Shown here one piece after another: positions 1-64,000 of a stretch of 64,000 bases of DNA. Positions within the stretch are counted from its first letter, which is position 1, and each line of letters begins with the position of its first letter. Source of the DNA: Labia minor (taxonomy: Eukaryota > Arthropoda > Insecta > Dermaptera > Spongiphoridae); contig OY720348.1 of assembly GCA_963082975.1 (NCBI GenBank), positions 55,083,564-55,147,563 on the forward strand, read 5' to 3'. The notes beneath the pieces were generated by a model. That model ran no database searches and had not been told where the DNA came from. It saw nothing but the letters and a program-made list of their open reading frames with translations. The translations under genes and the position numbers were made by a program.

Positions 1-268
1 TTTTTATTGTAATATTTAAATTTTGTCAATATTAAATTAAAATCATTACTACCACTAATGCCAGAATAATGAAAAAATATACGTTGAGTACTTATTTTTG
101 GTGAGCTGTATTTATAAAAAATTTTGAAGAAACCAATATTATTCGAAGAGAATTGAATTTGCCATCAGCAAAAAGATGATACATGAAAATAAAAGAAAAA
201 CAAAAGACATATATAAGATTGAGTATTCAAAATATAATACATTTTTTTTTATCACAAAAAGTACTAAC

Positions 269-983
269 CTCGGAGTTATAAATAGGTTGCCCACTCGTAG
301 TAGGTCACTCGACGATATCGATGAACTCGTACTTCTCACCATCTCCCTCCATATATACTAGTGGTCCAAATTTGTTTCGTGAATCCATGTTCTTTCAGAT
401 GAACTAATAGAGAAATTGAAAATATTTAAATTATTAAATACACTTATTTTTTATATTCAAATGAATAATCCAAAACATTAAATTAAATTTTAACCTAATA
501 TTCTAAACTAAGCACGACGAATTAAATATAAAAAAAAAATTGTCTTGATCATAGCTCTTTTGTTATTTCATGATTAATTATATAAATAAATATATCTCTA
601 ATGAAAAAAAGCCATTTTTAATTTAAAGAATACTTTCATAACAAAATATTAATTTTTATTAATATGTAATAATAGAAAATTATCTACAGATATATCTATA
701 CTATACTATATATTAAATTTATTGTTAGGAACTAGAATAAAACAAATTCAGTCGAATGTCAATTTCTTTTTCTTTTTCCTCTTTGTTAATTTATGAATAT
801 TTATATATCTGTCGATACAACTCTTTTATTGATTTTCACCTTAACAATTAATTGAATATGTAATTATAATTATTAATTATAGTTTGTTGATATATCAACT
901 TTACCTCTAATGTGATGTGATTCCTTTTTCTATATGGATCAGATATATTCTTCAGTCGACGACTAACATCAAACCATAACAAG
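269..983 (-). pseudogene. Two-exon minus-strand gene fragment, internal TGA
   Basis: Exon 905-983 is preceded by a long T tract plus AG and followed by GTAAAG. It is open for 26 codons (LLWFDVSRRLKN...). Exon 269-391 has AG before it and GTTAGT after it and joins in phase. It reads NMDSRNKFGPLVYMEGDGEK and onward to FIDIVE, then a single TGA at 305-307, then remains open to the donor (...GQPIYNSE). It is either the end of a real protein or a nonsense mutation. All three units carry the same TGA. The acceptor of exon 269-391 is not unique, since another AG lies at 404-405. I do not recognise the product. Confidence 0.45.
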
Positions 984-3538
984 CTAAAAAAAAAAAACCG
1001 AAAAATTATTTAAATACCTTAACTCGCATAATAATATCAATATAGTAATTTAAAAGCAAAAAAAAATTTTTTTCAAATAAATATCAACTATAATTCTCTA
1101 TTTTCTTACTTTTAATCACTTTTAATATAATAATAAGCACAATATCTAGCCCCATTATGTGTGACTTATTAATTCTTATTTAATTTAGGTACTCTGTTCT
1201 TTATTAGAAACCTAATCAAATTGATTTCTTTTCAATAATAATATGATATGAGAGATTGAATTTCAAGTGTTTGATTTTTATTATTTATTTTATAATGCAT
1301 TTTCACTGATATTCAATAAATATTTTAATAAACTTGTCGATTTCTTAGAAAATAACGGAGAGATATCAATATTAAAAAATAAATAAAATTATATTGAAAA
1401 AATAATGATTTTTCAAGAGTTTATAATTATTTTAGATAAAATAAATCGCAATGAAAAAAATAAAAGATAAAAAAAAAAAAAATAACCCTGCACTTTTCTA
1501 GAATAAATGTTAATACAAATAATATATATATATATAATTGAATATTGAAGATAAAAAAAATAAAATAAAATGTTAAACTCGTAATTAAAAATAAAAGTAA
1601 AAAAAATTATAGTACTACATTATAATAATATGTATGTATCCGATTAAAATTTTATTCTATTTTAAATATATATATATATATATGATATGATATGATTTGG
1701 TTTAAAAATATTTAGGTACACCTAGGCATATATATGTTAGTATATAAATTAAATATTAACTAATTCTGTTAGAATAGAGGATATGTTATAGAAAAAGTTC
1801 AAATTTATAGAACAAGATGATTTATGCTCCAATTTCATTACCAAATTTGGGCTTCTATTCTATACAAATAAAACAATTTAAAATAAAAAAAATAATTATA
1901 GTAATTAATATCAGAGAATTAGATTTTAAACTAATCGAAATCTTTAATAATGCTTTTAATCAACGAATAGTATTTTTTATATTAATTACGAGTATCTATT
2001 TCATCGTACTAGTATTATAAATCTATTATTTGTAGTCTTATTTCGAAATTTAAATAAACGTTTTTCTTTTTAAAATAAATAAAATTGAATTTTATTTATA
2101 AATACCTTACTTTATAAGTTGAATCATGTGAAATGAAAAATTCAATATCATGTTTTCAAAATTTTTCGTTAATTGTTCAGGAGAATTCTGTCTGACTGAA
2201 TTGAATTTGATTTTTCTTCTAATATTTTATTTTAATTCCACCACAAGTATTCTTATTTTATATAGCGGGATAGTACTACTCCCACTTATCTAAACAATTT
2301 ATAATTTAATGTTTTTTCTTTTCTATCAAACCCCAGAAACAATCATGATTTTTGTAAATGCACCACCCTCATTCATCCTTGGATATCAAGACTCACTATG
2401 AACAAGTCAGAACTCGTTCAATAATTTATATTAAATTAATAAATAATAATTCTAGTAATTCTCAGAATTTTTAAAATATATCGATATTTAGTTTCATTTC
2501 CGACAATTAACCAAATATCCTTTATTTTATTCTAATAGTTCCCATTGGAATTGATTTATTAAAATGATACCAGATAATTTCATGACAAGACAAGATAAAA
2601 GAAATCCTAAATATTATGATTAATATTATTTATCTTCTTCACCAAAGTACAATATATTATATCTATCCTATTTCGAATTTAAAAAATAAACGTTATATAT
2701 TCTCTTGATATTACTATAAATAAAATTTAATTTTGATTATCTGTCTAGAAGAGATGAATCAATACATTCTTTATAAAATTCTTTCTGTATGTAGAGAGCT
2801 TTAAGCGAGAATTTTAGTAATTTTTTTAAATTTAGTATTTTCTGTGTCGGATGTCTAACTAAAAGGGGCTCCAACTTTGTAAAATCTTCCCAAATTCATA
2901 AATATAGTTAATTACCATCCAGTACGTATTTGAACTCTAATTCAAATATTCTATTGAATTTAAAAACATAATATTTGAAATGTAGCTCATTCGGAAGAGG
3001 GTCATTACCCACACACACAACTTTTTCATTTTTTTTCCTCTAAACTGACCGGAAAAATAAAGCTATATATTTGATAGTTTTTCACATGATTAAAAATTGA
3101 TAAAACTGCTATATATAGAATTTCAGCTTGATTGATTTGCTAAAAATACCAGAATTAATTTTTTAACACTGCAAATCACGCGCCAGCACGTGACGTGTTG
3201 CCATCAACAAAGAGCCAAACATGCGCTGGTTTAATAAATATTATTTATTAATTTTAATTTATAAATTGTAATTAATTAAATTTAATTTAAATATAATATA
3301 TGTTATTTAATCGAATTCAAACTGCGAGATAGTCCAGATTTTTTTTTTTTTTTTGATTACTTTTTTTATAAGACAAGAAAAACGATTCCAATGAAAAAAA
3401 CAACTAACAATGCATACAAATATTAATTTCAATATTATAAATAATTCAAATGATTTACACTTAAATCGGGCGTCTCTGGAACTAGTTTTTTACTCTAATA
3501 AATGCATTATTCCAAGAACTGGGTATTTTTTTTATGTT
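984..3538. other. AT-rich stretch, no supported gene
   Basis: Very AT-rich and rich in homopolymers and AT repeats (for example 1521-1536). A 67-codon frame at 1817-2020 is low-complexity and I do not call it. A weak candidate exon pair (2332-2376 and 2227-2289, minus strand) is discussed under rejected items. Equivalent stretches lie at 26373-28955 and 48761-51343, where the AT repeat is expanded to about 44 bp (near 26909 and 49297). Confidence 0.6.
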
Positions 3539-3568
3539 TAGGTGTGAAGGGGCGCTCTGAGCAGCTAG
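3539..3568 (-). repeat. Partial, inverted terminus of hairpin element
   Basis: The reverse complement of the left end of the double-hairpin element (CTAGCTGCTCAGAGCGCC...), ending in CTAG next to T. The GC hairpins are missing. Copies lie at 28956-28985 and 51344-51373. Confidence 0.6.
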
Positions 3569-3869
3569 TATAATTATAAAAAATATAAAAAAGAATGGGT
3601 AATTCTTAAAAGTACAGTTCCAATTATTAATAAAGAAATAATATAAAAAAAATAATAATAAAATAAATTACTCAAATAAATTTTAAAAAAATAAAATAAA
3701 TTATATAAATTAGCGATTTGGGTGTACTAGTTACGAGATAAATGCATTGGGAATTAATCAAGAAATCCAAATTTAGTAATGCAATTGAAATATTCTATTT
3801 ATTAGAAGAATAGTTTTTCTAAATATTCTATTATTGAATAAATCTAGGAATGTGATTAAAAAAAAAAGA

Positions 3870-4650
3870 TGCAATGGTATTTATATTCAATAGTCATCCA
3901 CTCATGGATTTGGATAAAACTTTACCAGTAGGTTCTTTTTTAAGTCCAAATAAACATTTCTTATGCAATTCTTGCGGGTCGCTTTTAGTTTACGAGATAA
4001 AAAGCATTAAAGTTTGCATATAAATCCATTGATATTCTATTTAGCTTCCATGTTTCACTAATTTGAGAATCAGAGGGATCCACTAATTTTCTTCAGTTCG
4101 GATTAGATATAGAAAAATTTAAAAAATAATTAATTAAATAATTTCTCTATATCCAAACCGAACCGAAAAAACCGAAAATTAGGAATAAGTTAATAATTAG
4201 TGAATTAGTCAATAAATAAGTTCATAATAAGGTAATCTGGCAATCTTTAATCCATTTTATCTTGTAAACTAGAATCGATTAGCATATTATGGACCTCGAA
4301 ATATAAAGAAATTTTTTATTAACTAATTAACTAATTAAATTGATTTTCGATTTTTATGGTTCAGGAATTATTTAATTAATTATTTTTTTAATTTTTCTAT
4401 ATCTAATCCAAACTGAAAAAAGAACAGAAAATTACTTAAGCCCTCTCTGATGGTCAAATAATAAAACATGCTAGTTAAATAGAATATCAATGGGTTTATA
4501 TACAAATTTTAATAATTTTTATCTCGTAAATGAAAAGCGACCGCCACATACTGCTTAAGGAAAGTTCGTTTTGAATCTAAAAAGGAATCCATTGGCAAAG
4601 TTTTATCCAAATCCATGACTGGATGACCAGTTTATATAATTACCGATGCA
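3870..4650. repeat. Long inverted repeat with related ORFs in both arms
   Basis: Arm 3870-4144 is the imperfect reverse complement of 4365-4650, with a spacer of about 220 bp. Each arm, read away from its outer end, carries a frame beginning MDLDKTLP (3904 on plus, 4616 on minus). A transcript through it could fold into a long hairpin. Copies lie at 29286-30066 and 51674-52454. Confidence 0.8.
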
Positions 4651-4894
4651 AAAATAAATCAATTGGAAATATTATATGTAGTATTGAAGGAAATTGTTTT
4701 AAAAAAATGTAAAAGAATGTTTTTCTATGCAAATCCAATAATATAATAATAGAAAAATAGAATAGATTAGATGTTTAAAAAAATAAATAACTAACTTACC
4801 ATGTAATGGAGGGTGTGATTAGAATAGTATACAACTATAATGCATGGAGTGGATGCAACCTTCCTTCATGGCCCATTCTTTGTAAATTGTAATT
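4509..4894 (-). pseudogene. Two-exon minus-strand gene fragment (MDLDKTLP)
   Basis: Exon 4800-4894 is bounded by a pyrimidine tract plus CCAG and by GTAAGT. It is open in one frame (ITIYKEWAMKEGCIHSMHYS...) except for one TAA. In that frame its last base joins the first two bases of the next exon (CCAG acceptor, exon start 4618) to continue into a 35-codon frame, MDLDKTLPMDSFLDSK... ending in TAA at 4509-4511. A GTATGT inside that exon could be an alternative donor. Splice sites and phase fit; the TAA suggests decay or a start at the second exon. The product is unknown. Confidence 0.45.
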
Positions 4895-5129
4895 CTGGAA
4901 AAAGAAAAAAAAGGAAATTATTATTTTTGTTATATAGATAGGAATATTTAAAAAAATTCGGAAAGGATAGTATATCTAATATGAATTTTTGTTATTATTT
5001 CTATAATTCTCCCTATTATAGGCTTAATAGACTGGAACTTACTTTTCAGTTTTATTTCCTAATTAGCGGTGCGATTTTCAAAAGAATCACTTGTATCTAT
5101 TCACAGTGTATTCAACGATTAATTATAGA

Positions 5130-5399
5130 ATACAAATTTTAGATGGCTTGAACTATTCCAAGACAAAGAGAGTGTAAATTTAGGTGATAAAGTGTCTGTT
5201 TGTGCGCGTCAGTAATGGCTACCAAACTAATCCACGTTTTACCGCTAGTATTTATTTCTCCAATTACTTGGGGGGTGGGAGTGGGGCAGGGGAAGAGGGG
5301 AGAGGCGCCAAAAAGTTCTATTAATCCAATAGGTTACATTACGAATCAGAAAATAAACTGCGCATATTATCTATTCGTCAATTCAATAGGATCATGAAT
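5130..5399 (+). mobile_element. 5'-truncated BEL/Pao 3' end
   Basis: Matches the last codons of the BEL polyprotein (LDGLNYSKTKRV and stop) plus its 3' untranslated region, including the purine run at 5288-5305. It starts abruptly in the run before the LDG codons and has no upstream pol. The 65-codon frame within it (5200-5397) is untranslated-region sequence, not a gene. Confidence 0.85.
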
Positions 5400-5409
5400 T
5401 ATATATATA

Positions 5410-5491
5410 CTAGCTGCTCAGAGCGCCTTCGGCGCTCTTCACACCTAGACGGGGGCTCCGCCCCCTGTACCCCCGAGTGGTACATAGTATT
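5410..5491. mobile_element. Double-hairpin element, left TIR missing
   Basis: Carries GAGCGCCTTCGGCGCTC (7 bp stem, 3 nt loop) and GGGGGCTCCGCCCCC (6 bp stem), and ends TACATAGTATT. The left ACTATGTA repeat is absent because the copy abuts the AT tract. It marks the left edge of the block found only in unit 1. Confidence 0.7.
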
Positions 5492-5639
5492 TGGTGGTTG
5501 AAAGTAGTAAAAGGTTTTCATCCATTTTGTTTCAATCAGTATATTACAATAAAACATTCATTTCTTTTTGTGTTCTTATTTAAAAAATATATTTTAATTT
5601 AATCACTATATTAATTATATATATTATTATTGTATATGT

Positions 5640-6800
5640 TATATCTATCTACCTATGTGGCTCAAAGATACTCGAAAGTTCTTAGCCGCAACAACCACAT
5701 TTCTCCAAGTGTCCCTATCCTGAGCCCTTGTTCCATCTCTCTTACGTCCCTTCCTACGCGTCATTGGTTTTCCAAGCGGACGTTTTCCAATCGGTCTTCC
5801 CACCAATATCTTTTTCCTCTCCCATTCTAGCCACGTGCCCTGCCTATCGCAGCTTTTTCCCTTTTATAACCCTAACTATTTCTGAAGATGCAGAGAGACC
5901 ATGCAATTTCTTGTTATGCAGTCTCCCCCATTCCCCGGTGACCTCATCTTTCTTTGGCCAATAAATGCAGGGAAGAATCCTATTCTCAAATACTCTGAAT
6001 CTACTCTCATCTCCAAGGGTCATAGACCATGCCTCCCACCCATATAATGCAACAGGCAAAATAATCTTTTTATATATTCCCTTTGATAATAATTTTCAAG
6101 AGATAAGCCTCTTTATTGCAAGATAACAGGCGTTTCCCGATTGCAACCCCGATTTAAATTCTTCTCAAATATTATTATCCTTCGTGATTACATTCAATTT
6201 TTCTACATATTCAAATTCTACATTTTGTATCTTAAGATTTTGTATGTTAATACTCTTCCTCTTTGATACTAAATATTTTTTCTTATCACTATTAATTTCA
6301 AACCTCCATTAAATTTTCCTCGCTAACTGTAATTGCAATTGCCGAATCTCCTATTATATTTAAGTCGTCTGGGTAACCTAATATTTTACAATTTATTTCC
6401 GCATCTTATTCTTTCTTTACTACCTTCAAGACAAATTTGAAGATTGAAAATTTGAAAAAGTTTATCCGGATCTATTGAGTCATGCGTATGTTTTACTAAA
6501 GTCTACAAATAATTAGTGAACAGAAATATTGAATTCGCGGTTTTTTTTCCTAATATCTGTCATAATGAAAATATCTTAATTAATGTTGGTCGATTTGGCC
6601 TGAACCCGCAATGATATCTCCTAATATTTCCACCGCCTATGGTTCTTAAGTATTTTCTATGTTATTATAGTGAAATAGAGTATAATATTTCTTGATCATT
6701 ACATTTGCTAGGGGATTTGAAAATTATTCGTCGCAATATGAAGATTTCGCTTACAGTTTCTGTCATGTCCGACCTCCATCCAACAGTTATTTTCTGTCAA
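5640..6800 (-). pseudogene. LINE reverse transcriptase remnant (C-terminal half)
   Basis: The minus strand reads, in shifting frames, the ordered landmarks of a non-LTR retrotransposon RT: CGFRPNRPT (near 6600), FVDFSKT (near 6500), YPDD in place of YADD with GDSAIAITV (6341-6388), then ACYLAIKRL, LYGWEAWSM, RFRVFENRI, DEVTGEWGRLHN and HVARMGEE (down to about 5700). Multiple stops and frameshifts show it is dead. The 71-codon frame at 5844-6059 is its best-preserved piece. The catalytic motif has Pro in the alanine position. The exact clade is not resolved. Confidence 0.8.
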
Positions 6801-6859
6801 GTTTTTTGATTCTCTTAATCATGTGATCTATATATTTAATTTTTTTTGATTCATTATAA

Positions 6860-8079
6860 TAAAATTTAAACAAATAAAAATTTTTACTTTGTTAATTTAT
6901 ATAAATTTCAATATAAACTGATTGTGAGTGATACGCTTAGCCAATACTCTGAATAATTTGTGTACAAAAATATTGAATGTTCTTAGCGAGATTTGATATA
7001 ATGTTGTACGATTTGTCCTAAATCTGAATTAGAAGAAAATTATAAATTGCCTCCTTTTCCAGCTCAATTCATTTACCCACCCATGTTGCATATGGCATCT
7101 AAATTTCTTAAAACTCCGTTTTTTTAATTTAAAATAGAAGGAGAGAAAGAGTTTTAAATTATATTCGAATAGTCTATATATTCTATATATCAGTATTTTT
7201 TTTCTGAATTTAATAGCAAGTTGATTTTAAAAATTTTCCATTCTTAATGCATATGATTGATTACATGTGTTAAAATTTAAAAAAATTCAAATATTCTAAT
7301 TTTTATATTTATATACAATTTAATATTATTTTTTATTAATATCATATCAAAAAAAAAGAGAATTTATTAAAATTAAAAATAAAAAAAGAAGCCTATTAAT
7401 AAAAAATTGAATGGTGATTTAAATATTTTATTAAATTAATTAAAATGAGACCTTTTAGAATAAATTATTTAATTGAAATGATATTTAAATATAAGAATTT
7501 AAAAAAATATTATATTCTTTGTTTGGCAATTGTTATTTAATTATGTGCAACATGATTCGACTTGCACAGAGCATCGTTATTTTTTATTAATATCACATAA
7601 TAAAAATGAATCTTTTAAACATAATAAATAAAAAAGACATTTTAATAAATTTAAAAAATATACCCAATTTAAAAATGTCAAAAATTTAAAACAACTTTAT
7701 ATCATCATATTTTAATTTTTATATAATATATATATATATTTAGTAATTAATAATAGAGTAATTAAATTAAAATAAAAAACAAAGATAATATAATTCAGTC
7801 ATTTTAATTCAGGTTAAATAATATTTTTTTTTATTATTCAATGATAAAATTTATATATTATTATATATATATTATAGAAAAGAAGAAATATTCAATTAAA
7901 TAAAAAATAATTTAAGATAAAAATATGATCTAATAAATATTTTAATTAAATTGAGAACTTTTAGAATAAATTATCTAATTGAATTGATATTTGTATATTA
8001 GAATTTAAAATAAAAAGGGAAATATTATAATAATTCTTCTATTGGGAATCGCTATGATAATTCATTGTTTGAAATGATT
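6860..8079. other. AT-rich part of the unit 1-only block
   Basis: No gene is seen. About 870 bp here (near 7021-7890) has no counterpart in the related block at 19251-21578, so the two blocks are old, separately diverged copies. Confidence 0.5.
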
Positions 8080-8288
8080 CCGCTAGGCCGACAGTGAGCC
8101 GCGAGCTGCTCTTGAATGAACAACACGGAGAATTATATAAACTTTAAAAAATTAATTTCTGCGGTTATTGATAAGATATTAATAAAATGTATAGCCTATG
8201 TTACTCTAGAGGTATATAAGAATATTGTGATGTAATTTCAAAGAAATCGGTTCAGCCAATTCTGAGTCTATAAAATAGTAATTTTCCG

Positions 8289-8367
<79 letters not shown>

Positions 8368-8467
8368 GTGAAAAATTCTAAAGTCACTTATGGATTCTAG
8401 AGGTCATGAAACGCGAAGATATGCAAAAATTTTTAAATTCTGAGCAATGTGCAGACAAAAACCTTTT
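8080..8467 (+). mobile_element. RTE-like 3' tail with (GACA)n
   Basis: Contains TATAGCCTATGTTACTC and, about 50 bp later, AAATCGGTTCAGCC, followed by a tetranucleotide run. I associate this combination with the 3' ends of RTE-type non-LTR elements and derived short elements in insects. The (GACA)n run (8289-8367) has nearly 20 repeats here, against about 4 in the related copies. Confidence 0.6.
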
Positions 8468-8530
8468 TTTATATATATAGATATATATATTAATTCATTT
8501 TTTTATATATTAAATAATTGAAATTTTATA

Positions 8531-8627
8531 AATACTATGTATATACTAGCTGCTAGGAGCGCCTTCGGCGCTCTTCACACCTAGACGGGGGCTCCGCCCC
8601 CTGTACCCCCGAGTGTTACATAGTATT
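8531..8627. mobile_element. Double-hairpin element with terminal inverted repeats
   Basis: A 97 bp element bounded by AATACTATGTA and TACATAGTATT. Inside are two perfect GC-rich hairpins. On the minus strand the first hairpin is followed within about a dozen bases by CTAG next to T, which is the arrangement of a Helitron 3' end. Confidence 0.7.
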
Positions 8628-9116
8628 TGGTTGAATTTAATTAATCTTTTTTGTTTTATATTTTTGTTATTTTAATTACTTCTTTATATTTCACAAATGA
8701 AAATATTTAAACAAAATAACTGATTTGAATTTGTATATAGAATTTCTCCCTCTCTTCGATATTGACAATCATAAGAGAAGGGTCTGGACTTCCGCATTTT
8801 AGAATAAATTGCTCAAAAAATTTACTATTTTTTTTCAATTAAGAAAATTCGTAATTATATTATTTAGATTTAATTTTAAAAAAAATGTGGAAAAAGTTAT
8901 TTTTAATTGTTTTCTCAATGAAAATTTAGTATGGATTTAATTTATTAATTTGAATGATTGTTTTTAAATTTAATTAAATTTTAATACAATAAAATGAATA
9001 CTTATAGAAACTATTTAGGCAATTTATTCCAATTTATTATGCTATAAAATAATATAATAATTTTCTTAATATATTTTTATTTTTAAACAAATTAGTTTTT
9101 AATCTCATTTAGTACT

Positions 9117-9162
<46 letters not shown>

Positions 9163-9596
9163 GGTATATACTGATATATGTTTTTGAACTTGAAAAATAT
9201 CCACATGACTTTGAAAGGCGAATCAAACTGTTTAAGTCTCATGAGGAAATTCAATTTATGTATTTTTTTATTAATTAAGATAAATTAATAAATAGTATTT
9301 AAAAATATTAAAATCAAAATATTTATTTCAGGGTGACTTAATTATTAGATTTTGGAATATATATTTATAGCTTACTATATATATTTTTTATATAATAATC
9401 TCTTAAAAACAATTTTCATTTTTTAAATTACTATTTATTTAAATAGATAAAATTAAAAAACATTAAATCATAATTTCTATTAAAATATTAAATAAGTTTG
9501 ACCTAATTTATGAAATAAATTAATATAATTATTTTTACTATGATTTAAATATTTTAAATGATATTTAATTAATTAAAAACTTATAATAAATTAAAT
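8628..9596. other. AT-rich stretch, no supported gene
   Basis: Contains a pure (AT)n tract at 9121-9161 and nothing gene-like. Equivalents are 30972-31924 ((AT)n at 31464-31489) and 53360-54334 ((AT)n at 53852-53899). Confidence 0.6.
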
Positions 9597-10598
9597 ATTT
9601 TAATAATCCAGCCAATTGATAAAACATGAACAGTGACTTCGAATTGAAATAGACATCAGATGAATTCTTATTAAATGTTTTATAATGATAAATAATTTAT
9701 GGTTTATTCAAATTATATAAAAAGCCTTAAAAAGTGCCATGCATCAGAATAATCTCGAATAAATATAAAAATACATTATATTATTATTTAGATTATCCCA
9801 GTATAAAATATAAATAAAAAAAATTTATTCTTATGTAATATATTGAAAAAAGATTTTTATAAGTTTATATAGAACTATATAATTTTATTTTTTTGTTATT
9901 TATTTAAATTAAAATATTTTAAATTAATATTAAATAGAATAAATACATATGGAAGTTATATTATACGTATATAATTAAATGAAAAGAATGAAAAATTATT
10001 TTGTGACAATTTTACAATGATAATTGTGAGGAGGAGTTGAGAGGGTTGTAATTGGTTATCGCGAGTTAGAATAAATGATAATAAACCTCACCCCGAGGTT
10101 GAATTTTGACAAGAACAGCGCCGCTCTCCGAGCGCCCTGGCTATGCGAGCGCACTCACACACGAACACTGATAGACTGACTACCGCTCGAGCGGCTGGCT
10201 AAGAAGAGCCCCTGGCATTTAGGCAACCCGCTTCGCTAGTTTCCAAATTTAAAATTTTCATATTTAAAGTACCTGGATTATCCAGCAGCCGCTCAGAAGA
10301 ATAAAAATGTATACTTTACTAAGTGTTTTAATAATATTAATTAATTTTAATAATATTCTTAAATTTGAATTAGTAAATTGATTGAGTATATTGATTTATT
10401 ATGATTATACTCTCTTCTGGTATTTTTATCTTATAATTAAATAATAATTATTATTTATATATATACAATCTGTATATTTATTGAATAAACCATAAATTAA
10501 TATTTATTATAAAACATTTAATAAGAAATCATTTGATGTCTATTTCAATTCGAAGACACTGTTCATGTCATGCTTTATCAATTAGCTGGATTATTAAA
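9597..10598. repeat. Inverted repeat bracketing a GC-rich islet
   Basis: Arm 9597-9711 is the near-perfect reverse complement of 10481-10598, with a spacer of about 770 bp. The spacer holds a GC-rich islet (10081-10245) with CGCTCGAGCG and several GAGCGC blocks, unlike its surroundings. It could be a non-autonomous DNA transposon with sub-terminal inverted repeats. No transposase or target duplication was identified. Confidence 0.75.
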
Positions 10599-10929
10599 AT
10601 ATATAAACTTTATATTAATTTTAATCTTAATTTAAATTATCTAATTTATCATATTTTCATTCAATTAATGTCATTTTATCATATTTATTAAATTTTTTAT
10701 ATGAATTAAGAAAGTTATACACATTTATTTTAAATATATATCATTTGAAATAAGTTGACCTGTGGCCAGGTCCGAACCGATCGACGGTTTGAAATAAATT
10801 AATTTCCAGCTACAGAAACAATTTCAAATAATTTTAATATATCTATTAATGAAATAAAAAACAGATATGGATATAACATAAATATTTTTAATTTTATTTT
10901 ATTTATAATATATATGTAAGACCAGGCTG

Positions 10930-10957
10930 TGACGTCATGAATGGCTGGATGACGTCA
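10930..10957. promoter_or_regulatory. Twin CRE-like palindromes
   Basis: TGACGTCA occurs twice, starting at 10930 and 10950, 20 bp apart (about two helical turns). This octamer is the classical CREB/ATF site. No transcript start could be tied to it. Copies: 33258/33278 and 55668/55688. Confidence 0.35.
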
Positions 10958-11109
10958 TATAATTTTAAATCAAGAAAAAACTAATAAATATGATTTTCCC
11001 GAGGATAAAACCAATACAAAGTGCATGATATTCGTGGTGATATATAAAAAAATCTCCTCATGTGAAATTTTGTGTGAAAATAACCCTTCCCTTACTATCG
11101 TCGGTCGGT

Positions 11110-11425: not shown

Positions 11426-11436
11426 GTCAATATTAT

Positions 11437-49293: not shown

Positions 49294-49338
<45 letters not shown>

Positions 49339-52698: not shown

Positions 52699-52933
52699 CT
52701 GGAAAAAGAAAAAAAAGGAAATTATTATTTTTGTTATATAGATAGGAATATTTAAAAAAATTCGGAAAGGATAGTATATCTAATATGAATTTTTGTTATT
52801 ATTTCTATAATTCTCCCTATTATAGGCTTAATAGACTGGAACTTACTTTTCAGTTTTATTTCCTAATTAGCGGTGCGATTTTCAAAAGAATCACTTGTAT
52901 CTATTCACAGTGTATTCAACGATTAATTATAGA

Positions 52934-53203
52934 ATACAAATTTTAGATGGCTTGAACTATTCCAAGACAAAGAGAGTGTAAATTTAGGTGATAAAGTGTC
53001 TGTTTGTGCGCGTCAGTAATGGCTACCAAACTAATCCACGTTTTACCGCTAGTATTAATTTCTCCAATTACTTGGGGGGTGGGAGTGGGGCAGGGGAAGA
53101 GGGGAGAGGCGCCAAAAAGTTCTATTAATCCAATAGGTTACATTACGAATCAGAAAATAAACTGCGCATATTATCTATTCGTCAATTCAATAGGATCATG
53201 AAT
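52934..53203 (+). mobile_element. Unit 3 truncated BEL 3' end
   Basis: Same fragment again, followed by (AT)n and the hairpin element at 53263. Confidence 0.85.
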
Positions 53204-53262
53204 TATATATATATATATATATTAATTCATTTTTTTATATATTAAATAATTGAAATTTTATA

Positions 53263-53359
53263 AATACTATGTATATACTAGCTGCTAGGAGCGCCTTCGG
53301 CGCTCTTCACACCTAGACGGGGGCTCCGCCCCCTGTACCCCCGAGTGTTACATAGTATT
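53263..53359. mobile_element. Double-hairpin element, unit 3 first site
   Basis: Complete, identical in layout to the copy at 30875. Confidence 0.7.
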
Positions 53360-53848
53360 TGGTTGAATTTAATTAATCTTTTTTGTTTTATATTTTTGTT
53401 ATTTTAATTACTTCTTTATATTTCACAAATGAAAATATTTAAACAAAATAACTGATTTGAATTTGTATATAGAATTTCTCCCTCTCTTCGATATTGACAA
53501 TCATAAGAGAAGGGTCTGGACTTCCGCATTTTAGAATAAATTGCTCAAAAAATTTACTATTTTTTTTCAATTAAGAAAATTCGTAATTATATTATTTAGA
53601 TTTAATTTTAAAAAAAATGTGGAAAAAGTTATTTTTAATTGTTTTCTCAATGAAAATTTAGTAAGGATTTAATTTATTAATTTGAATGATTGTTTTTAAA
53701 TTTAATTAAATTTTAATACAATAAAATGAATACTTATAGAAACTATTTAGGCAATTTATTCCAATTTATTATGCTATAAAATAATATAATAATTTTCTTA
53801 ATATATTTTTATTTTTAAACAAATTAGTTTTTAATCTCATTTAGTACT

Positions 53849-53900
<52 letters not shown>

Positions 53901-54334
53901 GGTATATACTGATATATGTTTTTGAACTTGAAAAATATCCACATGACTTTGAAAGGCGAATCAAACTGTTTAAGTCTCATGAGGAAATTCAATTTATGTA
54001 TTTTTTTATTAATTAAGATAAATTAATAAATAGTATTTAAAAATATTAAAATCAAAATATTTATTTCAGGGTGACTTAATTATTAGATTTTGGAATATAT
54101 ATTTATAGCTTACTATATATATTTTTTATATAATAATCTCTTAAAAACAATTTTCATTTTTTAAATTACTATTTATTTAAATAGATAAAATTAAAAAACA
54201 TTAAATCATAATTTCTATTAAAATATTAAATAAGTTTGACCTAATTTATGAAATAAATTAATATAATTATTTTTACTATGATTTAAATATTTTAAATGAT
54301 ATTTAATTAATTAAAAACTTATAATAAATTAAAT

Positions 54335-55336
54335 ATTTTAATAATCCAGCCAATTGATAAAACATGAACAGTGACTTCGAATTGAAATAGACATCAGATG
54401 AATTCTTATTAAATGTTTTATAATGATAAATAATTTATGGTTTATTCAAATTATATAAAAAGCCTTAAAAAGTGCCATGCATCAGAATAATCTCGAATAA
54501 ATATAAAAATACATTATATTATTATTTAGATTATCCCAGTATAAAATATAAATAAAAAAAATTTATTCTTATGTAATATATTGAAAAAAGATTTTTATAA
54601 GTTTATATAGAACTATATAATTTTATTTTTTTGTTATTTATTTAAATTAAAATATTTTAAATTAATATTAAATAGAATAAATACATATGGAAGTTATATT
54701 ATACGTATATAATTAAATGAAAAGAATGAAAAATTATTTTGTGACAATTTTACAATGATAATTGTGAGGAGGAGTTGAGAGGGTTGTAATTGGTTATCGC
54801 GAGTTAGAATAAATGATAATAAACCTCACCCCGAGGTTGAATTTTGACAAGAACAGCGCCGCTCGCCGAGCGCCCTGGCTATGCGAGCGCACTCACACAC
54901 GAACACTGATAGACTGACTACCGCTCGAGCGGCTGGCTAAGAAGAGCCCCTGGCATTTAGGCAACCCGCTTCGCTAGTTTCCAAATTTAAAATTTTCATA
55001 TTTAAAGTACCTGGATTATCCAGCAGCCGCTCAGAAGAATAAAAATGTATACTTTACTAAGTGTTTTAATAATATTAATTAATTTTAATAATATTCTTAA
55101 ATTTGAATTAGTAAATTGATTGAGTATATTGATTTATTATGATTATACTCTCTTCTGGTATTTTTATCTTATAATTAAATAATAATTATTATTTATATAT
55201 ATACAATCTGTATATTTATTGAATAAACCATAAATTAATATTTATTATAAAACATTTAATAAGAAATCATTTGATGTCTATTTCAATTCGAAGACACTGT
55301 TCATGTCATGCTTTATCAATTAGCTGGATTATTAAA
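54335..55336. repeat. Unit 3 inverted repeat with GC islet
   Basis: Arms 54335-54449 and 55219-55336; islet 54819-54983. Confidence 0.75.
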
Positions 55337-56968
55337 ATATATAAACTTTATATTAATTTTAATCTTAATTTAAATTATCTAATTTATCATATTTTCATTC
55401 AATTAATGTCATTTTATCATATTTATTAAATTTTTTATATGAATTAAGAAAGTTATACACATTTATTTTAAATATATATCATTTGAAATAAGTTGACCTG
55501 TGGCCAGGTCCGAACCGATCGACGGTTTGAAATAAATTAATTTCCAGCTACAGAAACAATTTCAAATAATTTTAATATATCTATTAATGAAATAAAAAAC
55601 AGATATGGATATAACATAAATATTTTTAATTTTATTTTATTTATAATATATATGTAAGACCAGGCTGTGACGTCATGAATGGCTGGATGACGTCATATAA
55701 TTTTAAATCAAGAAAAAACTAATAAATATGATTTTCCCGAGGATAAAACCAATACAAAGTGCATGATATTCGTGGTGATATATAAAAAAATCTCCTCATG
55801 TGAAATTTTGTGTGAAAATAACCCTTCCCTTACTATCGTCGGTCGGTAAAAATATAAAAAAGAATGGGTAATTCTTAAAAGTACAGTTCCAATTATTAAT
55901 AAAGAAATAATATAAAAAAAATAATAATAAAATAAATTACTCAAATAAATTTTAAAAAAATAAAATAAATTATATAAATTAGCGTTTTGTGTGCATTGGG
56001 AATTAATCAAGAAATCCAAATTTAGTAATGCAATAGAAATATTCTATTTATTAGAAGAATAGTTTTTCTAAATATTATTGAATAAAACTAGGAATGTGAT
56101 TAAAAAAAAAAGATGCAATGGTATTTATATTCAATAGTCATCCACTCATGCATTTGGTTAAAAGTCAATATTATAAGATATGCAAAAATTTTTAAATTCT
56201 GAGCAATGTGCAGACAAAAACCTTTTTATATATATATCTATATATATATTATTATTGTAAGATAATGTCTATGTGGTTGAATTTATCAAATATCATATGG
56301 ATTGAAATTAAAATAAGAAAAAATCTCGAGGAATCAAGTTAGTTCATAGTATGCATTGGCTGTCTACCTACAAGGGGCTTCTATCCAAAACTCTTTTTCA
56401 AGTTTTCTATTCTTTACAAACTTAATTAAAAAGAATGACAAATTCCTATCTAGCATTGAATAGTAGAATATAATTTAATAATTAGATAGAATCAATAAAA
56501 AAAGAAATAAGAAATTGGTTGGAAAAATCTAATACAAGTAATAATTGAAAAAATATGGAGTGTCTCCACTCGATTATCTCGCAAATTAGAATCCTAAAAT
56601 ATGATATTTAATATTAATTATCTTCTTCATCTAAATTTACAATTTACATAATTTGTAGCATATCTCAAATTTCAAATAAACGTAATTCTCTTTATATTTA
56701 ATCAAATTTAAAGCATATTCTTTCTATAAGATATTGGAAATAAAAAATTCATTGCGTTCTTTTTAAAAGTTTGATGTGTATCTTTAGAAGAATTTCAGGA
56801 GATTTTTTTTAATAAAATATATTCGAATAAGCGTGTTTAAAATAAAATAAGGGCAGTAAAAGGGTTATTATTTGAAAAATAATTATTTGCTCTACAGTTT
56901 TCCAAAACTATCATCATTAAGGAATATTCATATTAATTTTATAAATTTTATATACTTTTGAAAAAATA

Positions 56969-57409
56969 TTATACTGATTTAATACATATCCCGCCATCTA
57001 TTGCGATTAGTGTTGACTACATTTAAAAGTTTTATATTAAAATATTATTTTCAATATTATTCATTAAGTATATATATATATAGCAATAATTAAAATTAAA
57101 TTAATTTAAATTAAACTGATTTAATAATAAAAATAATTATCATTCTATTAAAGGAGAAATACAAAGGAATATATCAAAAGAATTGAAAAAAATCTCTCAA
57201 CCAAGAACTGAAATCTAATTTCTAAATTATGATGAAATTCAAATATCTTGTTATATACTAAGGGTATATGTTATCATTATCATCTATAATATACTATAAA
57301 ATTAAAAATTAAAATATATAATAAATACATATACAATACTTACAATGGATTGATTAATGGTAGCTAATGGAGTCGACAAACACTTCAACCGGATCATCGT
57401 CTTCAATTC
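56969..57409 (-). pseudogene. Unit 3 truncated gene (exons 3-4)
   Basis: Exons 57344-57409 and 56969-57016, adjoining the inverted fragment at 57613-57888. Confidence 0.6.
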
Positions 57410-58576
57410 CTGGAAAACAAAGACTAATATGAAATAATGTTTTCCTGGAATAATTGATATTGGAAATCTACTCACCTTTTTAATGGATCCGTAAAAGTGA
57501 AAGATTGCCATCAACATCGATCGATGATACATGAAAAACAAGAATAAAAGACATATTTATTAAGTATGAAAATAGATTAGAATAATATTAAAATATTTCT
57601 TAAAAAAATACTTAAGTTCTCTTACTGTCCAAAAATTCTTTAAATTTTTCATATATTATCCTATTCCTATGATAGATATCCTTCAATTTCTATTAAATAA
57701 TATACATTATAAATATTCATTGAATTGAATTTCAAACATTAATGATGATATATTATAGAAATTTCTATAAAAGGATAAAATAAAATATTTCACTATTATC
57801 TTATATTCTTCAACTATTATTTTTTAAGTTTAAAAACGGTTTTAAATAATTTTTAATATATCAATATATGTTTTATCTATCACCATCATTATAATTATAT
57901 TCAATACTGTTGATATAATTGTATTTAATTTTTCACAATTTGTCTCATTTGATATCAACTTAATATCAAAAATCTTTAACTTTATATTATATCTAAATTT
58001 TAATCCTAAGTATTGTTATTTGGTCCTTTATTAAATTTTATATTCAGTTGCATAAAACATTCTGTTTTATTTAATCAATCCTATTTTTATTTCATTGTTT
58101 CTTTCCAGAAATTTGGATAGGAATAGTTTCGATTTAAAGGTACCTAAAGCATCTTTGTTGAGTTAACAAGATCCGATTTTCGCTTTTCCATTAGGCACAC
58201 CCCTTTTTATATTTCATTAATTAATTTCAATACAGTTTTGTCGTGTTCTGAACAAAATACGACTGGCGACTTACTCTTTTATATACCTATCTTTATTTTC
58301 CTTCCATATCACGGTCATTCCAATCTAAGATAACTTTCCATTGGCTAGTTATCTTCAAACCCCCCCCCCCCAACAGCTTCCAGTTTCGAATTATTTCCCT
58401 TTCGGGTCGTAATAAGGGCTTTAAGCCGTGTTATAGTGACGACACGCTGACAGGACAGGTGCGATTTTATCGATACCCTGTCTCCTTATAATCGAAATTT
58501 TCTTGTTTTTTTTCTCGAGAGAAACACATTAATTATAAATTTTGAAATTTATTAAATTCTATCTTTTCTTAACACT

Positions 58577-61500
58577 ATGGCTAAGGCAAGTTTCAAACAG
58601 GCAACTAGTCTATGGGCATTCATTTCAACGGATGTCCAATTCGTTAAAGATTTTAAAAAAAAGTTGATATCAGACAATTGTAATCATGTAAATGAATTTA
58701 TAAATAATTGTTCTGAAACAGTTCAGAAGTTGGATAAATTTATTAATTTTATTTTAGATAATAATTTACATTCAAATGCATGTGAAACCGAGTTTAAAGA
58801 GGCTTGTGAAGCACGTTTGCTTTTGAAACATATGCTAGTCGATGCAAAGGCTTTACCAGAAGTGAAACCCATTCCAGCCGAACACAAAATGGCGGCTGCT
58901 GTCCCCACCCTCCCTAAACTTAACATTGAGCGTTTCGGAGGAGATATCCTCAGTTACACAGCTTTCAAGCAGCAATTTGACTGCTCTATCACTAACAACG
59001 TTCAACTGGGCGGGATCGACAAGCTCAAATACTTAAGAAGCTATCTTCATTCAGAAGCTTATTGTTTAATAAGCCATCTCAGCTTATCAGATGGCAATTT
59101 TGAGGTTGCACTGGCAATCCTCGATCAACATTACAATCAGCGGCGCACACTTGTTTACGCGCATATTTCCGCTTTATACAACTTTCCTAAAGTTTCAGCC
59201 CCGAATAAACACGAGTATTCAAAACTATGCTCAACCGTTTTGCAATTAATTTCGGAGCTGGGTGCACTGAAGATAGAAAGGACTACTTGGAGCCCGATGC
59301 TGGGCCTATGGATTCTTGACAAGCTGCCACCTGCTGTTAAGGACCAGTTTCTAATGCAACTTCCGGATGATAATGTTATACCTGAAGTTGAATCCATTCT
59401 TCAATATATTCAGAAGATGGCCAAGTTCACAGCTGACAAGGAGCGAGAAGGCAGTCATATTAAAAATAAGCTAAGTTATCCTCTTTCTAAAAAACCAAGT
59501 TACAAAAAACAAAGCAATTATAAAAAATTTTACTTGAAATCTAATTATACAAATTCTAAAAATGTTGGTTCTAGTAAAATTAACTCAAAATTTCTATGTT
59601 TTCTTTGTAAGAAAGACCACTTAATTTTTAAATGTCCTGAGTTTATTAATTGGACAGTTCAAAAGAGGTGTGACTTTTGTCAAGCCAATAACTTATGTAA
59701 AGTATGCTTGTCTAGACATAATGGAAAATGCAAATCATTAAACTCTTGTCAAATATGTCAAAACAGACACTCATCCTTTTTGCACTTTTCTAGGTCTAAT
59801 AACAACACCGTCAGGGAGCAGAGAGAGAGAGACAATGATTCATCGTCAAACGCCAAGGAGTCACCCGTCGGCGGGGAGCTGGAACCGCGGACGCAAAATT
59901 CGTCATCGCGTGATGTTTATCACCTTAAGGATGACAGCGAAATTTTACTTTCAAAAGTTTCCATGAGGGTATTCACTCCAGGTGGTATTGCCATTATTCT
60001 TCCATGTTTCATAGACTCTGGTTCACAAATAAGCGCTATAAGCCATGATGTTGCGTCCTCTCTTAATCTGCCTTTAATCCCCCATAAAATGTCCATTGGC
60101 GGAATAGACAATTCATTTTCTATTCAGTCAAAATATAAAGTAAATTTGAACTGTCAATCGACAGTCAATGATTTTGAATTTTCCCATTTATTCCAGGTTA
60201 TTGATTCAATTCAAACAGTTATACCCTCAAATTATTTAAATTCTAATCAATTTGATTTCGTTAAGAATTTCCCCTGGGCTGATCCCAATTACTGTATCCC
60301 CACAAAAGTTAAAATTATCATTGGGTCTGATTTAATACCATTAATATTGAAATCTCATAACATTCTAAGTCCCAATAAATCCATTGTAGCAATAGACACC
60401 AAATTAGGTTGGACCTTTTGTGGTCGAGCATCACACGAGTCCAGCATTAATCATATTGTAACTCAATCTTCTGAACAAATAGAAGATAACACTTTGGACA
60501 AGAATCATGACCTTATTTTGAAATTATTTGAAATGGACCAAATGGGTCTATCTACAAAGATAGACTCGAACAACGAGGTGGAGAAACATTTTGTTAAAAA
60601 TGTAAAATTATTAAATTCTGGCCATCTCGAAGTAGATCTACCTTTTGTTAATAGTTCTAAACCGTTGGGACAATCCTTTAACAAGGCTTTGCAAGTTTTT
60701 AACAGTTTAGAAAGGAAAATGTCTAAAGACAAGTCCTTATTTATCGAATATCATGATTACATGAAGAATATGCTTAATCAAGGCTTCATGGAAAGGGTAG
60801 GCCCCCTCTCGTGTCATAACCATGCCCAAAAGAATAGCTTTTACCTGCCTCATCACGTGATTTATAAAAAATCAAATCACTCCATGAGAGTCGTGATGAA
60901 TGGCAGTTGCCCATCTTCTAATCATTTATCATTAAATTCTATTTTATCCATTGGCCCACCCCTCCAAAATGACTTGAGATTGATTTTACTCAAGTCGCGA
61001 TTAAATTCTATTTTATTATCTACTGACATAGTTAGCATGTATCTTATGATTTCAATTAACCCCACACATAGGTATTTCCTAAGAATTATTTGGAAATTAC
61101 CTGAAGACGATCATGCACAGATTTTTCGCATGTGTCGTCTCCCCTTCGGATTAGCTTGTAGTGCATTTTTAGCGGTTCGCTGTTTATTTTATCTTGCTGA
61201 CAAGCATAAGTCGACTCACCCGTTGGCTTATCGAGTTTTTAAGCAAAATTCTTACTTGGATGATTTTATCATCACTGCATCCTCATCGGATGAATTGATT
61301 AAAATTGTCAATCAATTAGTGGATCTTTTGAAAACTTATAATTTTTTACTTAACAAATGGTCCACTAATGACCAAAATATTTTAGACTATTTATTGAATC
61401 ATTTTAATCAAAATGACAATATTAAATATAATCCCATTCACTCTTCCACTAAATTATTGGGAGTGATGTGGAGCCCAAGTAATGACAGATTTCTTTTTGA

Positions 61501-63808
61501 TATTCCTGACGTGTCTGTCAACGTTTTAACTAAACGCTCTTTGCTTTCGCTTACAGCGTCTCATTGGGACCCAATTGGAATTGTTTCCCCTGTTACAATA
61601 TCCCTTCGGATATTATTACAAGTGGCTTGGAAGTCACCTTTAAAATTGGGCTGGGATGACCCCTTGCCAGATAACATACAATCCTTTTGGTTGAAATTTA
61701 AATCAGAATACCCTTTACTTTCAAATTATAACATCCCACATCTATTAATTCACCCTTTAGGCAAAACATTTAAAATTTTCGCTTTTAGCGATGCAAGTGA
61801 GTCAGCATACGGATTTTGCTCGTATCCTGTATCCTTTGACCAAAACAATCTCATATTATCATCTGTTTTCTTGTTATCTCGCTTTAGGGTATCCCCTATA
61901 AAAAAAATGTCAATTGCAAGATTAGAATTAGCTGCGTATTCTTTAATGTGTCAGTCGATCAACTTTATTTACCCATCTTTCGAAGTTCCTATTGACAGAA
62001 TCCACTTGTTTAGTGATTCTAAAGTTGTTTTAAGTTGGGTCCTTTCCGATCCCAACCGATTTAAAACTTACATTTCCAATCGAATAACTCATATACAAAA
62101 TTTAGACTTTTCTCCCACTCATTCTTATATATCTACTGAATTGAATCCTGCTGATTTAGCCACTAGGTCAATCAGCATTTCTAAATTTATATCTAATCCT
62201 TTATGGCAAACAGGTCCATTGGATATTTATTCAAATGTATTACCTTTTGATAAAAGCTTATGTGCTAATGCACTTGATCATTCTTTATTAGAAGAAAAGG
62301 CTGATGCCTCCTTATTTATTTTATCCCTAAAAAATAAGTTTAACTATATTGAAAATTTTATACAAAATTATTCCTCCTTTTATAAATTAGTTATTCATAT
62401 TGCCACTTGGCACAAGTATTTTGAATATCTTAAGTTTAAACTAGCGGCCTCTAAAAGCAATTCTCAAATTAAGAATTGTTTCAATGGTTTAACTTCAGAG
62501 GATTTAAATCGAGCTAAATTGTTTTTAATAAAAAATGCTCAGAATTTCTATTATTCCCAGGACATCAAAAATTTGTCACAAAACAAAGATGTCGAAAACT
62601 CATCTCTTAAATTGCTTTCACCTTTTTTAGACAGTGAAAATTATTTGCGCTTAGGTGGGCGTATAAATAAATCCAAATTTTCTTACAATTTTAAACACCC
62701 ATATTTACTCCCCTCTGAGAGTTTCTTAATCCCTCTTTTAATTCGTTATTATCACTTGCGTACCATGCATATGGGACCTAGCGCCCTTCAGGCATTTCTT
62801 AATAGCCATTTGTGGATTCCTCGACGTCGAAAACTCATTCGAAAAGTCTGTTTCGATTGCATTACTTGCAAGGCTCAGAAATCACAAAATGTTAAAACCC
62901 CTATAGGTGATTTACCTATTGACAGGTTAAACATAGCACCCAATTTTTCAACTGTCATGATCGATTATGCCGGTCCTTTTGAAGCCTCTTTAGTTAGAAA
63001 AAAGGGTCAAATTTATGTAAAAACTTATGCTTTACTATTCAAATGTCTTGTTACAAAAGGGGTGCATATTGAATTGTGTTATGATCTTACCACCTCTTCC
63101 TTTATGAACGCTTTTAAACGTTTTGTAGCACGACGAGGTTGCCCTCGCAAAATTTATTCCGATAACGCCACTACCTTTGTTTCGGCCAGTAAAATTTTAA
63201 AGTCTGATTATAAATATTTAATAACACAATTTCAGAACCCGCTATTTAAAAATTATCTTTTAGAACATAATATTGATTGGCATTTTTCACCTCCCCTGTC
63301 CCCTCATATGAACGGATTAATAGAGAACGCAGTCAAGGCACTTAAATTTCATCTCAAAAGAGTTAGGTCAAATCTAAAATTTTCCGTCTCCGAGCTGTCT
63401 ACCCTCTTGGATGTAGCCGAGTCATTCATTAACATGCGTCCTCTGTTTCATATCCTTGCAGACGACGGTGAGGTTGATATCTTAACCCCTTCACATTTTT
63501 TGCTTTCTAAACCTGTTTCTCTTTCTCTGGCCTCAGATGGTTTTGTGGAGAATATAAATTTAAGTACTAGATATAAAATGGTTCAGAATGTAACTTCGCA
63601 ATTGTGGCGCACCTGGTCTAAATCATATGTTGCCCAATTGCAACTTAAAGCCAAAGTAAAAAATTGTACAAATTTAAATGTAAACGACATTGTTTTGATC
63701 AAAGACCTGTCTTTGATACCTAACAACTGGGTAAAAGGTCGAGTGGTGAAATTATATTACAAATTTTTTTTAGATGGCTTGAACTATTCCAAGACAAAGA
63801 GAGTGTAA
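58577..63808 (+). CDS. gag-pol: BEL/Pao Gag-Pol polyprotein, unit 3, intact
   Basis: Again 1743 codons with every domain and catalytic residue named for the unit 2 copy. Replacements relative to units 1 and 2 include T to R near residue 236 (two adjacent base changes), R1055 to H, and three clustered in the integrase/C-terminal part: A1555 to P, I1570 to F and T1597 to R. None hits a catalytic position. The absence of frameshifts in 5.2 kb shows that the copy is young or was recently homogenised. Confidence 0.97.
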   Translation: MAKASFKQATSLWAFISTDVQFVKDFKKKLISDNCNHVNEFINNCSETVQKLDKFINFILDNNLHSNACETEFKEACEARLLLKHMLVDAKALPEVKPIPAEHKMAAAVPTLPKLNIERFGGDILSYTAFKQQFDCSITNNVQLGGIDKLKYLRSYLHSEAYCLISHLSLSDGNFEVALAILDQHYNQRRTLVYAHISALYNFPKVSAPNKHEYSKLCSTVLQLISELGALKIERTTWSPMLGLWILDKLPPAVKDQFLMQLPDDNVIPEVESILQYIQKMAKFTADKEREGSHIKNKLSYPLSKKPSYKKQSNYKKFYLKSNYTNSKNVGSSKINSKFLCFLCKKDHLIFKCPEFINWTVQKRCDFCQANNLCKVCLSRHNGKCKSLNSCQICQNRHSSFLHFSRSNNNTVREQRERDNDSSSNAKESPVGGELEPRTQNSSSRDVYHLKDDSEILLSKVSMRVFTPGGIAIILPCFIDSGSQISAISHDVASSLNLPLIPHKMSIGGIDNSFSIQSKYKVNLNCQSTVNDFEFSHLFQVIDSIQTVIPSNYLNSNQFDFVKNFPWADPNYCIPTKVKIIIGSDLIPLILKSHNILSPNKSIVAIDTKLGWTFCGRASHESSINHIVTQSSEQIEDNTLDKNHDLILKLFEMDQMGLSTKIDSNNEVEKHFVKNVKLLNSGHLEVDLPFVNSSKPLGQSFNKALQVFNSLERKMSKDKSLFIEYHDYMKNMLNQGFMERVGPLSCHNHAQKNSFYLPHHVIYKKSNHSMRVVMNGSCPSSNHLSLNSILSIGPPLQNDLRLILLKSRLNSILLSTDIVSMYLMISINPTHRYFLRIIWKLPEDDHAQIFRMCRLPFGLACSAFLAVRCLFYLADKHKSTHPLAYRVFKQNSYLDDFIITASSSDELIKIVNQLVDLLKTYNFLLNKWSTNDQNILDYLLNHFNQNDNIKYNPIHSSTKLLGVMWSPSNDRFLFDIPDVSVNVLTKRSLLSLTASHWDPIGIVSPVTISLRILLQVAWKSPLKLGWDDPLPDNIQSFWLKFKSEYPLLSNYNIPHLLIHPLGKTFKIFAFSDASESAYGFCSYPVSFDQNNLILSSVFLLSRFRVSPIKKMSIARLELAAYSLMCQSINFIYPSFEVPIDRIHLFSDSKVVLSWVLSDPNRFKTYISNRITHIQNLDFSPTHSYISTELNPADLATRSISISKFISNPLWQTGPLDIYSNVLPFDKSLCANALDHSLLEEKADASLFILSLKNKFNYIENFIQNYSSFYKLVIHIATWHKYFEYLKFKLAASKSNSQIKNCFNGLTSEDLNRAKLFLIKNAQNFYYSQDIKNLSQNKDVENSSLKLLSPFLDSENYLRLGGRINKSKFSYNFKHPYLLPSESFLIPLLIRYYHLRTMHMGPSALQAFLNSHLWIPRRRKLIRKVCFDCITCKAQKSQNVKTPIGDLPIDRLNIAPNFSTVMIDYAGPFEASLVRKKGQIYVKTYALLFKCLVTKGVHIELCYDLTTSSFMNAFKRFVARRGCPRKIYSDNATTFVSASKILKSDYKYLITQFQNPLFKNYLLEHNIDWHFSPPLSPHMNGLIENAVKALKFHLKRVRSNLKFSVSELSTLLDVAESFINMRPLFHILADDGEVDILTPSHFLLSKPVSLSLASDGFVENINLSTRYKMVQNVTSQLWRTWSKSYVAQLQLKAKVKNCTNLNVNDIVLIKDLSLIPNNWVKGRVVKLYYKFFLDGLNYSKTKRV

Positions 63809-64000
63809 ATTTTGGTGATAATGTGTCTGTTTGTGCGCGTCAGTAATAGCTACCAAACTAATCCACGTTTTACCGCTAGTATTAATTTCTCCAATTACTT
63901 GGGGGGTGGGAGTGGGGCAGGGGAAGAGGGGAGAGGCGCCAAAAAGTTCTATTAATCCAATAGGTTACATTACGAATCAGAAAATAAACTTATCATATTA

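What the first reader, a model, noticed from the sequence alone, without database searches (positions are those of the whole stretch)
1..64000. Head-to-tail array of a 22.4 kb unit carrying transposons plus spliced genes
Three successive units keep the same order over the whole window and are nearly identical. A period this long containing mixed genes and dead transposons is unusual: it could be a recently amplified locus, a B- or sex-chromosome block, or a macrosatellite. Units 2 and 3 share indels against unit 1, so amplification was stepwise.
Basis: seen in the sequence. Interest (0 to 1): 0.75.

Follow-up and report, generated by a model that had tools for sequence, protein, structure and literature searches.

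The report
Irregular 22-kb gene-and-transposon tandem array
A chromosome-scale contig of an unidentified genome carries a run of nearly identical blocks of about 22,000 letters, each holding a gene-like relic and a retrotransposon; it is an amplified repeat array of a known general kind whose irregular spacing shows how it grows and shrinks.

Summary
The repeat is real: window units 2 and 3 match over 20.5 kb at 99.7%, and a 2-kb probe finds 16 copies over 367 kb of contig C10. The period is not constant: 7 of 15 intervals are 21-23.5 kb. Each unit holds a longer (B) and a truncated (A) copy of one ~6.5-kb gene-like segment plus a BEL/Pao element without a detectable 3' LTR. A and B share 1.4 kb at ~98%, 10,056-10,152 bp apart. 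One interval lacks exactly 10,152 bp, and another place repeats the A half in steps of 10,220 and 9,901 bp: unequal recombination between A and B explains half-unit gains and losses. The segment also occurs at 25 places outside the array, 22 on C10, several in tandem at 5.8-7.7 kb (lower bound), so the 22.4-kb unit looks like a transposon-laden higher-order form of an older, smaller repeat. Splice-donor enrichment supports a formerly or still spliced gene, but copies share no consistent open frame. The BEL frame is open in units 2 and 3, broken in unit 1. Sex or B chromosome: untested. Macrosatellite-like array; new member of a known kind.

The parts
1..25399 (.). Unit 1 (25.4 kb, with an extra ~3 kb at 5410-8471)
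25400..47787 (.). Unit 2 (22,388 bp)
47788..64000 (.). Unit 3 (cut by the window end)
5410..8471 (.). ~3 kb present only in unit 1 at this place; pieces 90-94% like pieces of 19256-21478; lies between two parts of a short interspersed repeat
13822..18953 (+). BEL/Pao element, unit 1: frame split into 429, 901 and 395 codons (DUF1759; A17 peptidase and reverse transcriptase; H2C2 integrase zinc-binding and DUF5641)
   Evidence: no 3' LTR found
36153..41405 (+). BEL/Pao element, unit 2: one open frame of 1,750 codons
58556..63808 (+). BEL/Pao element, unit 3: one open frame of 1,750 codons
11437..12876 (-). Fragment A, unit 1: truncated copy of the gene-like segment, ~98% identical to 21526-22874
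33765..35206 (-). Fragment A, unit 2
56175..57614 (-). Fragment A, unit 3
21526..28400 (-). Gene-like segment, copy B, unit 1 (approximate ends); about 6.5 kb of it related to C10:45.27 Mb (L029) and C10:11.17 Mb (L030)
43916..50788 (-). Gene-like segment, copy B, unit 2 (placed by offset 22,388-22,390)
22604..25798 (-). Exon-like islands X8 to X1 of copy B, unit 1 (boundaries set by eye): 22604-22669, 22736-22793, 22876-22960, 23159-23264, 23622-23716, 24013-24103, 24236-24320, 25664-25798; GC 0.42 vs 0.20 in the gaps between X2 and X8
24230..24830 (.). Slowest-changing block of the gene-like segment
   Evidence: 15/594 differences to L029 vs 345/5,234 elsewhere, p=2.9e-5; to L030 9/408 vs 145/3,400, p=0.046
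18913..19355 (.). Short interspersed (SINE-like) repeat where the BEL copy ends; relatives at 5137-5409 with 8470-8635, 30553-30979, 41365-41803, 52941-53367, 63768-64000 (the label SINE-like is mine)
29286..30066 (.). Foldback-like inverted repeat (arms 29286-29562 and 29779-30066, imperfect)

Best explanation
A macrosatellite-like tandem array. An older repeat of about 6-7 kb containing a spliced-gene-like segment, found at several other places on the same contig, gained at this place a BEL/Pao element and other interspersed repeats, so that a longer copy (B), a truncated copy (A) and the transposon became one unit of about 22.4 kb. The unit was amplified by unequal crossing-over in whole-unit steps, and by unequal recombination between the ~98% identical A and B fragments in half-unit steps of about 10.1 kb. 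Shown: the array, a lower bound of its copy number, the A/B duplication, relatives outside, half-unit gains and losses. Inferred: unequal crossing-over as the process, the order of events, and that no protein is needed to explain the array.
For: Near-identical units with a mix of shared and private differences. 16 copies over 367 kb. A-B spacing in the unit is 10,151/10,152 in one sub-block and 10,057/10,056 in the other; between 55,080,000 and 55,083,063 exactly 10,152 bp of the unit are missing; and at 54,973,717-54,993,838 the A-plus-BEL half follows itself with no gene body between, in steps of 10,220 and 9,901. The two copies nearest the left end are the most diverged of 14 compared (2.0-5.9 per 1,000 to the other 12, which differ among themselves by 0-3.5). 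Long best-matching blocks also join non-neighbouring copies, e.g. offsets of 58.8 and 60.2 kb. Outside the array 25 places score above 1,300 bits, 22 of them on C10; the C10:45.27 Mb relative repeats itself with period 6,790 (710 bp at 100%).
Against: The 3,062 bases that should hold the deletion junction were not read. The longer intervals need other insertions, only partly identified. Three of the A-B half-steps are not exact (10,220, 9,901; 9,997 in unit 1). No reads, so an artefact is not excluded. The slow block and the donor enrichment allow that the segment still has a function.
Confidence: 0.78

Rival explanations
1. The array is kept for the dose or variety of a working gene in the 6.5-kb segment (protein or long non-coding RNA); the transposon is a passenger.
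For: Six GTRAGT donors on the minus strand of 22200-28400 against 1.87 in dinucleotide shuffles (reached in 5 of 500; plus strand 2 vs 1.27, reached in 182 of 500); GC-rich islands; a slow block; donor sites kept in a relative ~6% apart.
Against: Exon-like and intron-like pieces change alike (51/645 vs 93/1,063, p=0.59), exon indels of 2, 4 and 14 bases, X2 and X5 closed in all three frames in both copies seen, X1 closed in two of three. No expression data. The donor test was made after the region had been chosen by eye.
Confidence: 0.15
2. The 6.5-kb segment is itself a mobile element that tends to sit in tandem, and the array is a cluster of it.
For: Copies on C2, C6 and C9 as well; the first look found 566 candidates of which only 40 were scored, so its number may be higher.
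Against: 22 of 25 scored places outside the array are on C10, in local tandem sets, unlike a dispersing element; no Pfam transposon domain in the pieces tested; no ends or target-site copies were sought.
Confidence: 0.12
3. Assembly artefact: one or two real units written out many times.
For: Some copies are identical over 2 kb (c192, c204 and c342). No read data here.
Against: Copies carry private differences, copy-specific insertions (hAT-like frame at 54,937,403-54,939,082, LINE reverse transcriptase at 55,041,703-55,042,701) and a ~3.2-kb insertion shared by just two copies 58.8 kb apart.
Confidence: 0.04

Closest known systems
Macrosatellites and other long-unit tandem arrays such as human D4Z4, DXZ4 and RS447 (recalled; D4Z4 seen only in a search listing)
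   Same: Head-to-tail array of kilobase units that contain gene-like sequence, near-identical units, homogenised by recombination.
   Different: Unit here is several times longer than those human examples as I recall them, carries an internal A/B half-repeat and a retrotransposon, and is irregular.
BEL/Pao LTR retrotransposons
   Same: DUF1759, A17 peptidase, reverse transcriptase, integrase zinc-binding and DUF5641 matches in the usual order.
   Different: No 3' LTR found; copied by array amplification instead of by its own insertion.
Bicycle genes (aphid effector family; PMC9168663)
   Same: Short exons (58-135 bp) in a small gene.
   Different: Exon phases are not uniform and several pieces have no open frame; host order unknown.

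Membership tests
macrosatellite-like tandem array | head-to-tail, same-strand long units | tested here: met
macrosatellite-like tandem array | more than a few copies | tested here: met
   16 probe matches over 367 kb
macrosatellite-like tandem array | units homogenised within the array | tested here: met
   0-5.9 substitutions per 1,000 among 14 copies vs 87-95% to relatives elsewhere
macrosatellite-like tandem array | copy number varies between individuals | not testable with these tools
   one assembly, no reads
BEL/Pao retrotransposon | gag and pol domains of the family | tested here: met
   DUF1759 2e-24, Peptidase_A17 7.6e-36, RVT_1 2.4e-8, Integrase_H2C2 1.6e-7, DUF5641 3.6e-12
BEL/Pao retrotransposon | two LTRs | tested here: not met
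   no direct repeat of note between 12800-13900 and 18400-21200 in unit 1 (one copy, one search)
bicycle gene | many small internal exons, nearly all starting at codon position 2 | tested here: not met
   against PMC9168663 sections 6 and passages; eight candidate pieces, lead/tail phases differ, X2 and X5 closed
bicycle gene | aphid, phylloxerid or coccid host | not testable with these tools
   organism not named; the search meant to narrow it did not complete
bicycle gene | signal peptide, CYC motif, salivary expression | not tested
   pieces were not joined; no expression data

The most novel reading that the evidence does not exclude
The 6.5-kb segment is a fast-changing gene family made of many small exons and largely confined to one chromosome (perhaps host-interaction or germline-drive genes), alive in the smaller 6-7 kb arrays and decaying in this transposon-laden 22-kb array. 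In the three last exon-like pieces the exons differ while the introns hardly do (21/212 vs 2/148 substitutions, chosen after the fact, copies), which is the mark of positive selection on exons.
Probability: 0.07. Interest if true: 0.6.

Novelty: new member of a known kind. Interest (0 to 1): 0.33.

Why it matters
Long-unit arrays are usually collapsed in assemblies. This one is written out, and its half-unit gains and losses fit recombination between two internal homologous fragments to the base in one case, so it can serve as a readable record of how such arrays change and how transposons are co-amplified without moving.

Tried and rejected
Bicycle-type effector gene: suggested by short exon-like pieces; rejected as a classification after frames were tabulated and exon/intron rates were found equal overall.

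RNA families: none at gathering threshold in 1-31000; at E<=1 in 8400-31000 three matches, all to one bacterial sRNA family at 24.1 bits against a cut-off of 58.6, all in the GC-rich hairpin of the short interspersed repeat, taken as chance. No tRNA in the window or in L009, L014, L029, L030.

An automatic exon finder with strict thresholds gave 5 candidates in L029, none with the phase pattern sought; looser reading by eye was used afterwards, which weakens the exon model. X7 has no AG acceptor next to it (seen).

Papers: PMC9168663 seen as abstract/outline, passages and sections 11 and 6; PMC13041983 as outline and abstract; others only as search listings. I make no claim that this array is not in print.

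Not done because the genome service stopped answering: counting the slow block genome-wide, fetching the C9 and C2 relatives, reading C10:55,080,001-55,083,062, and a family search meant to narrow the host.

Full report
The window lies at C10:55,083,564-55,147,563 of a genome of 604 Mb in 71 contigs; it is 72.7% A+T (base counts).

Observation. The head-to-tail repeat is confirmed. Units start at 1, 25400 and 47788. Unit 2 is 22,388 bp; unit 1 is 25.4 kb because of about 3 kb at 5410-8471; unit 3 is cut by the window end. Units 2 and 3 share more differences against unit 1 than any other grouping. Probing the assembly with window:1000-3000 gives 16 matches in 367 kb of C10. Of the 15 intervals 7 are within 21-23.5 kb; the rest range from 12.2 to 41.5 kb.

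Anatomy. In the plus direction each unit holds: a truncated fragment A of a gene-like segment (11437-12876 in unit 1), a BEL/Pao element (13822-18953), a short interspersed repeat at its 3' end (18913-19355), a region with a relative elsewhere in unit 1, the longer copy B of the gene-like segment (about 21526-28400), a foldback-like inverted repeat (29286-30066), and a second short interspersed repeat (30553-30979). A and B share about 1.4 kb at 97.5-98.1% in unit 1. The BEL element matches DUF1759, Peptidase_A17, RVT_1, Integrase_H2C2 and DUF5641; no 3' LTR was found in unit 1. Its frame is open for 1,750 codons in units 2 and 3 and split in unit 1. In the part of the array that I read (54,880,001-55,080,000 and the window) ten copies begin with the same residues; two are open throughout and eight are interrupted, six of the eight after the same residue (frames of 200 or more codons listed).

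Gene-like segment. About 6.5 kb of copy B is related to C10:45.27 Mb (L029, 86.6-94.5% by piece) and C10:11.17 Mb (L030, mostly 91-99% by piece) (pieces of 60 bp or more, leaving aside short 70-79% internal matches). In one search, 25 places outside the array score above 1,300 bits: 22 on C10 and one each on C2, C6 and C9. Only 40 of 566 candidates were scored, so these are lower bounds and the C10 share may shift. Start-to-start distances within sets are 6,774, 6,790, 5,803 and 6,791 (also one of 12,844) near 45.27 Mb; 6,139 twice and 9,739 near 4.58 Mb; 7,651 near 0.55 Mb; 6,901 and 7,343 near 76.5 Mb. L029 repeats itself with period 6,790.

Is it a spliced gene? For: on the minus strand of 22200-28400 there are six GTRAGT donors against 1.87 in shuffles (5 of 500 shuffles reach six), on the plus strand two against 1.27 (182 of 500); eight GTRAG sites on the minus strand are kept in L029, three on the plus strand; exon-like islands have GC 0.42 against 0.20 between them. 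The region and boundaries were chosen by eye first. Against protein coding: the exon-like and intron-like pieces differ alike between window and L029 (51/645 and 93/1,063, p=0.59); indels in exon-like pieces are often not multiples of three; X2 and X5 are closed in all frames in both copies seen, X1 in two of three copies; one piece (X7) lacks an acceptor. A block at 24230-24830 changes more slowly (15/594 vs 345/5,234 to L029; 9/408 vs 145/3,400 to L030); G+C-rich sequence also aligns more reliably, so this is suggestive only. In X6-X8 alone the islands vary (21/212) while the gaps hardly do (2/148), a pattern picked after the fact and opposite to X1-X5 as a whole.

How the array changes. In the unit, A and B are 10,151-10,152 bp apart in one sub-block and 10,056-10,057 in the other. 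Between 55,080,000 (unit position 3257) and 55,083,063 (position 16472) exactly 10,152 bp are missing, so two gene bodies follow one another 12.2 kb apart; the 3,062 bases with the junction were not read. At 54,973,717, 54,983,937 and 54,993,838 three fragments follow in steps of 10,220 and 9,901, the first two with BEL and no gene body between: the reciprocal product. These are the two products expected from unequal recombination between A and B. The two left-end copies are the most diverged of 14, as expected if exchange keeps the middle alike. Some blocks match best between non-neighbours, and a ~3.2-kb insertion is shared by two places 58.8 kb apart, so multi-unit blocks were copied too. 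Other array copies hold a hAT-like frame (E=0.00075, just under the Pfam cut-off) and a LINE reverse transcriptase.

Verdict. A macrosatellite-like, transposon-laden array grown from an older 6-7 kb tandem repeat; real, well resolved, of a known general kind.

Noticed in passing
C10:54,937,403-54,939,082 (L014:7400-9082, minus): A 560-codon open frame resembling a hAT transposase inserted in one array copy (Pfam hAT dimerisation E=0.00075, below cut-off).
   Followed up: partly
C10:54,942,677-54,943,639 and 55,001,497-55,002,459: A 321-codon open frame without a Pfam match, in a ~3.2-kb insertion shared by two array places 58.8 kb apart.
   Followed up: partly
window 22604-22963: Exon-like islands X6-X8 vary between copies while the gaps between them are almost unchanged.
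   Followed up: partly
window 8558-8618, 19278-19338, 30902-30962: G+C-rich hairpin inside the short interspersed repeat, standing out in a 73% A+T window.
   Followed up: no
C10 near 0.55, 4.58, 45.27 and 76.5 Mb: Smaller tandem sets of the same segment at 5.8-7.7 kb spacing, three of the 4.58-Mb and all six of the 45.27-Mb matches with equal scores.
   Followed up: partly
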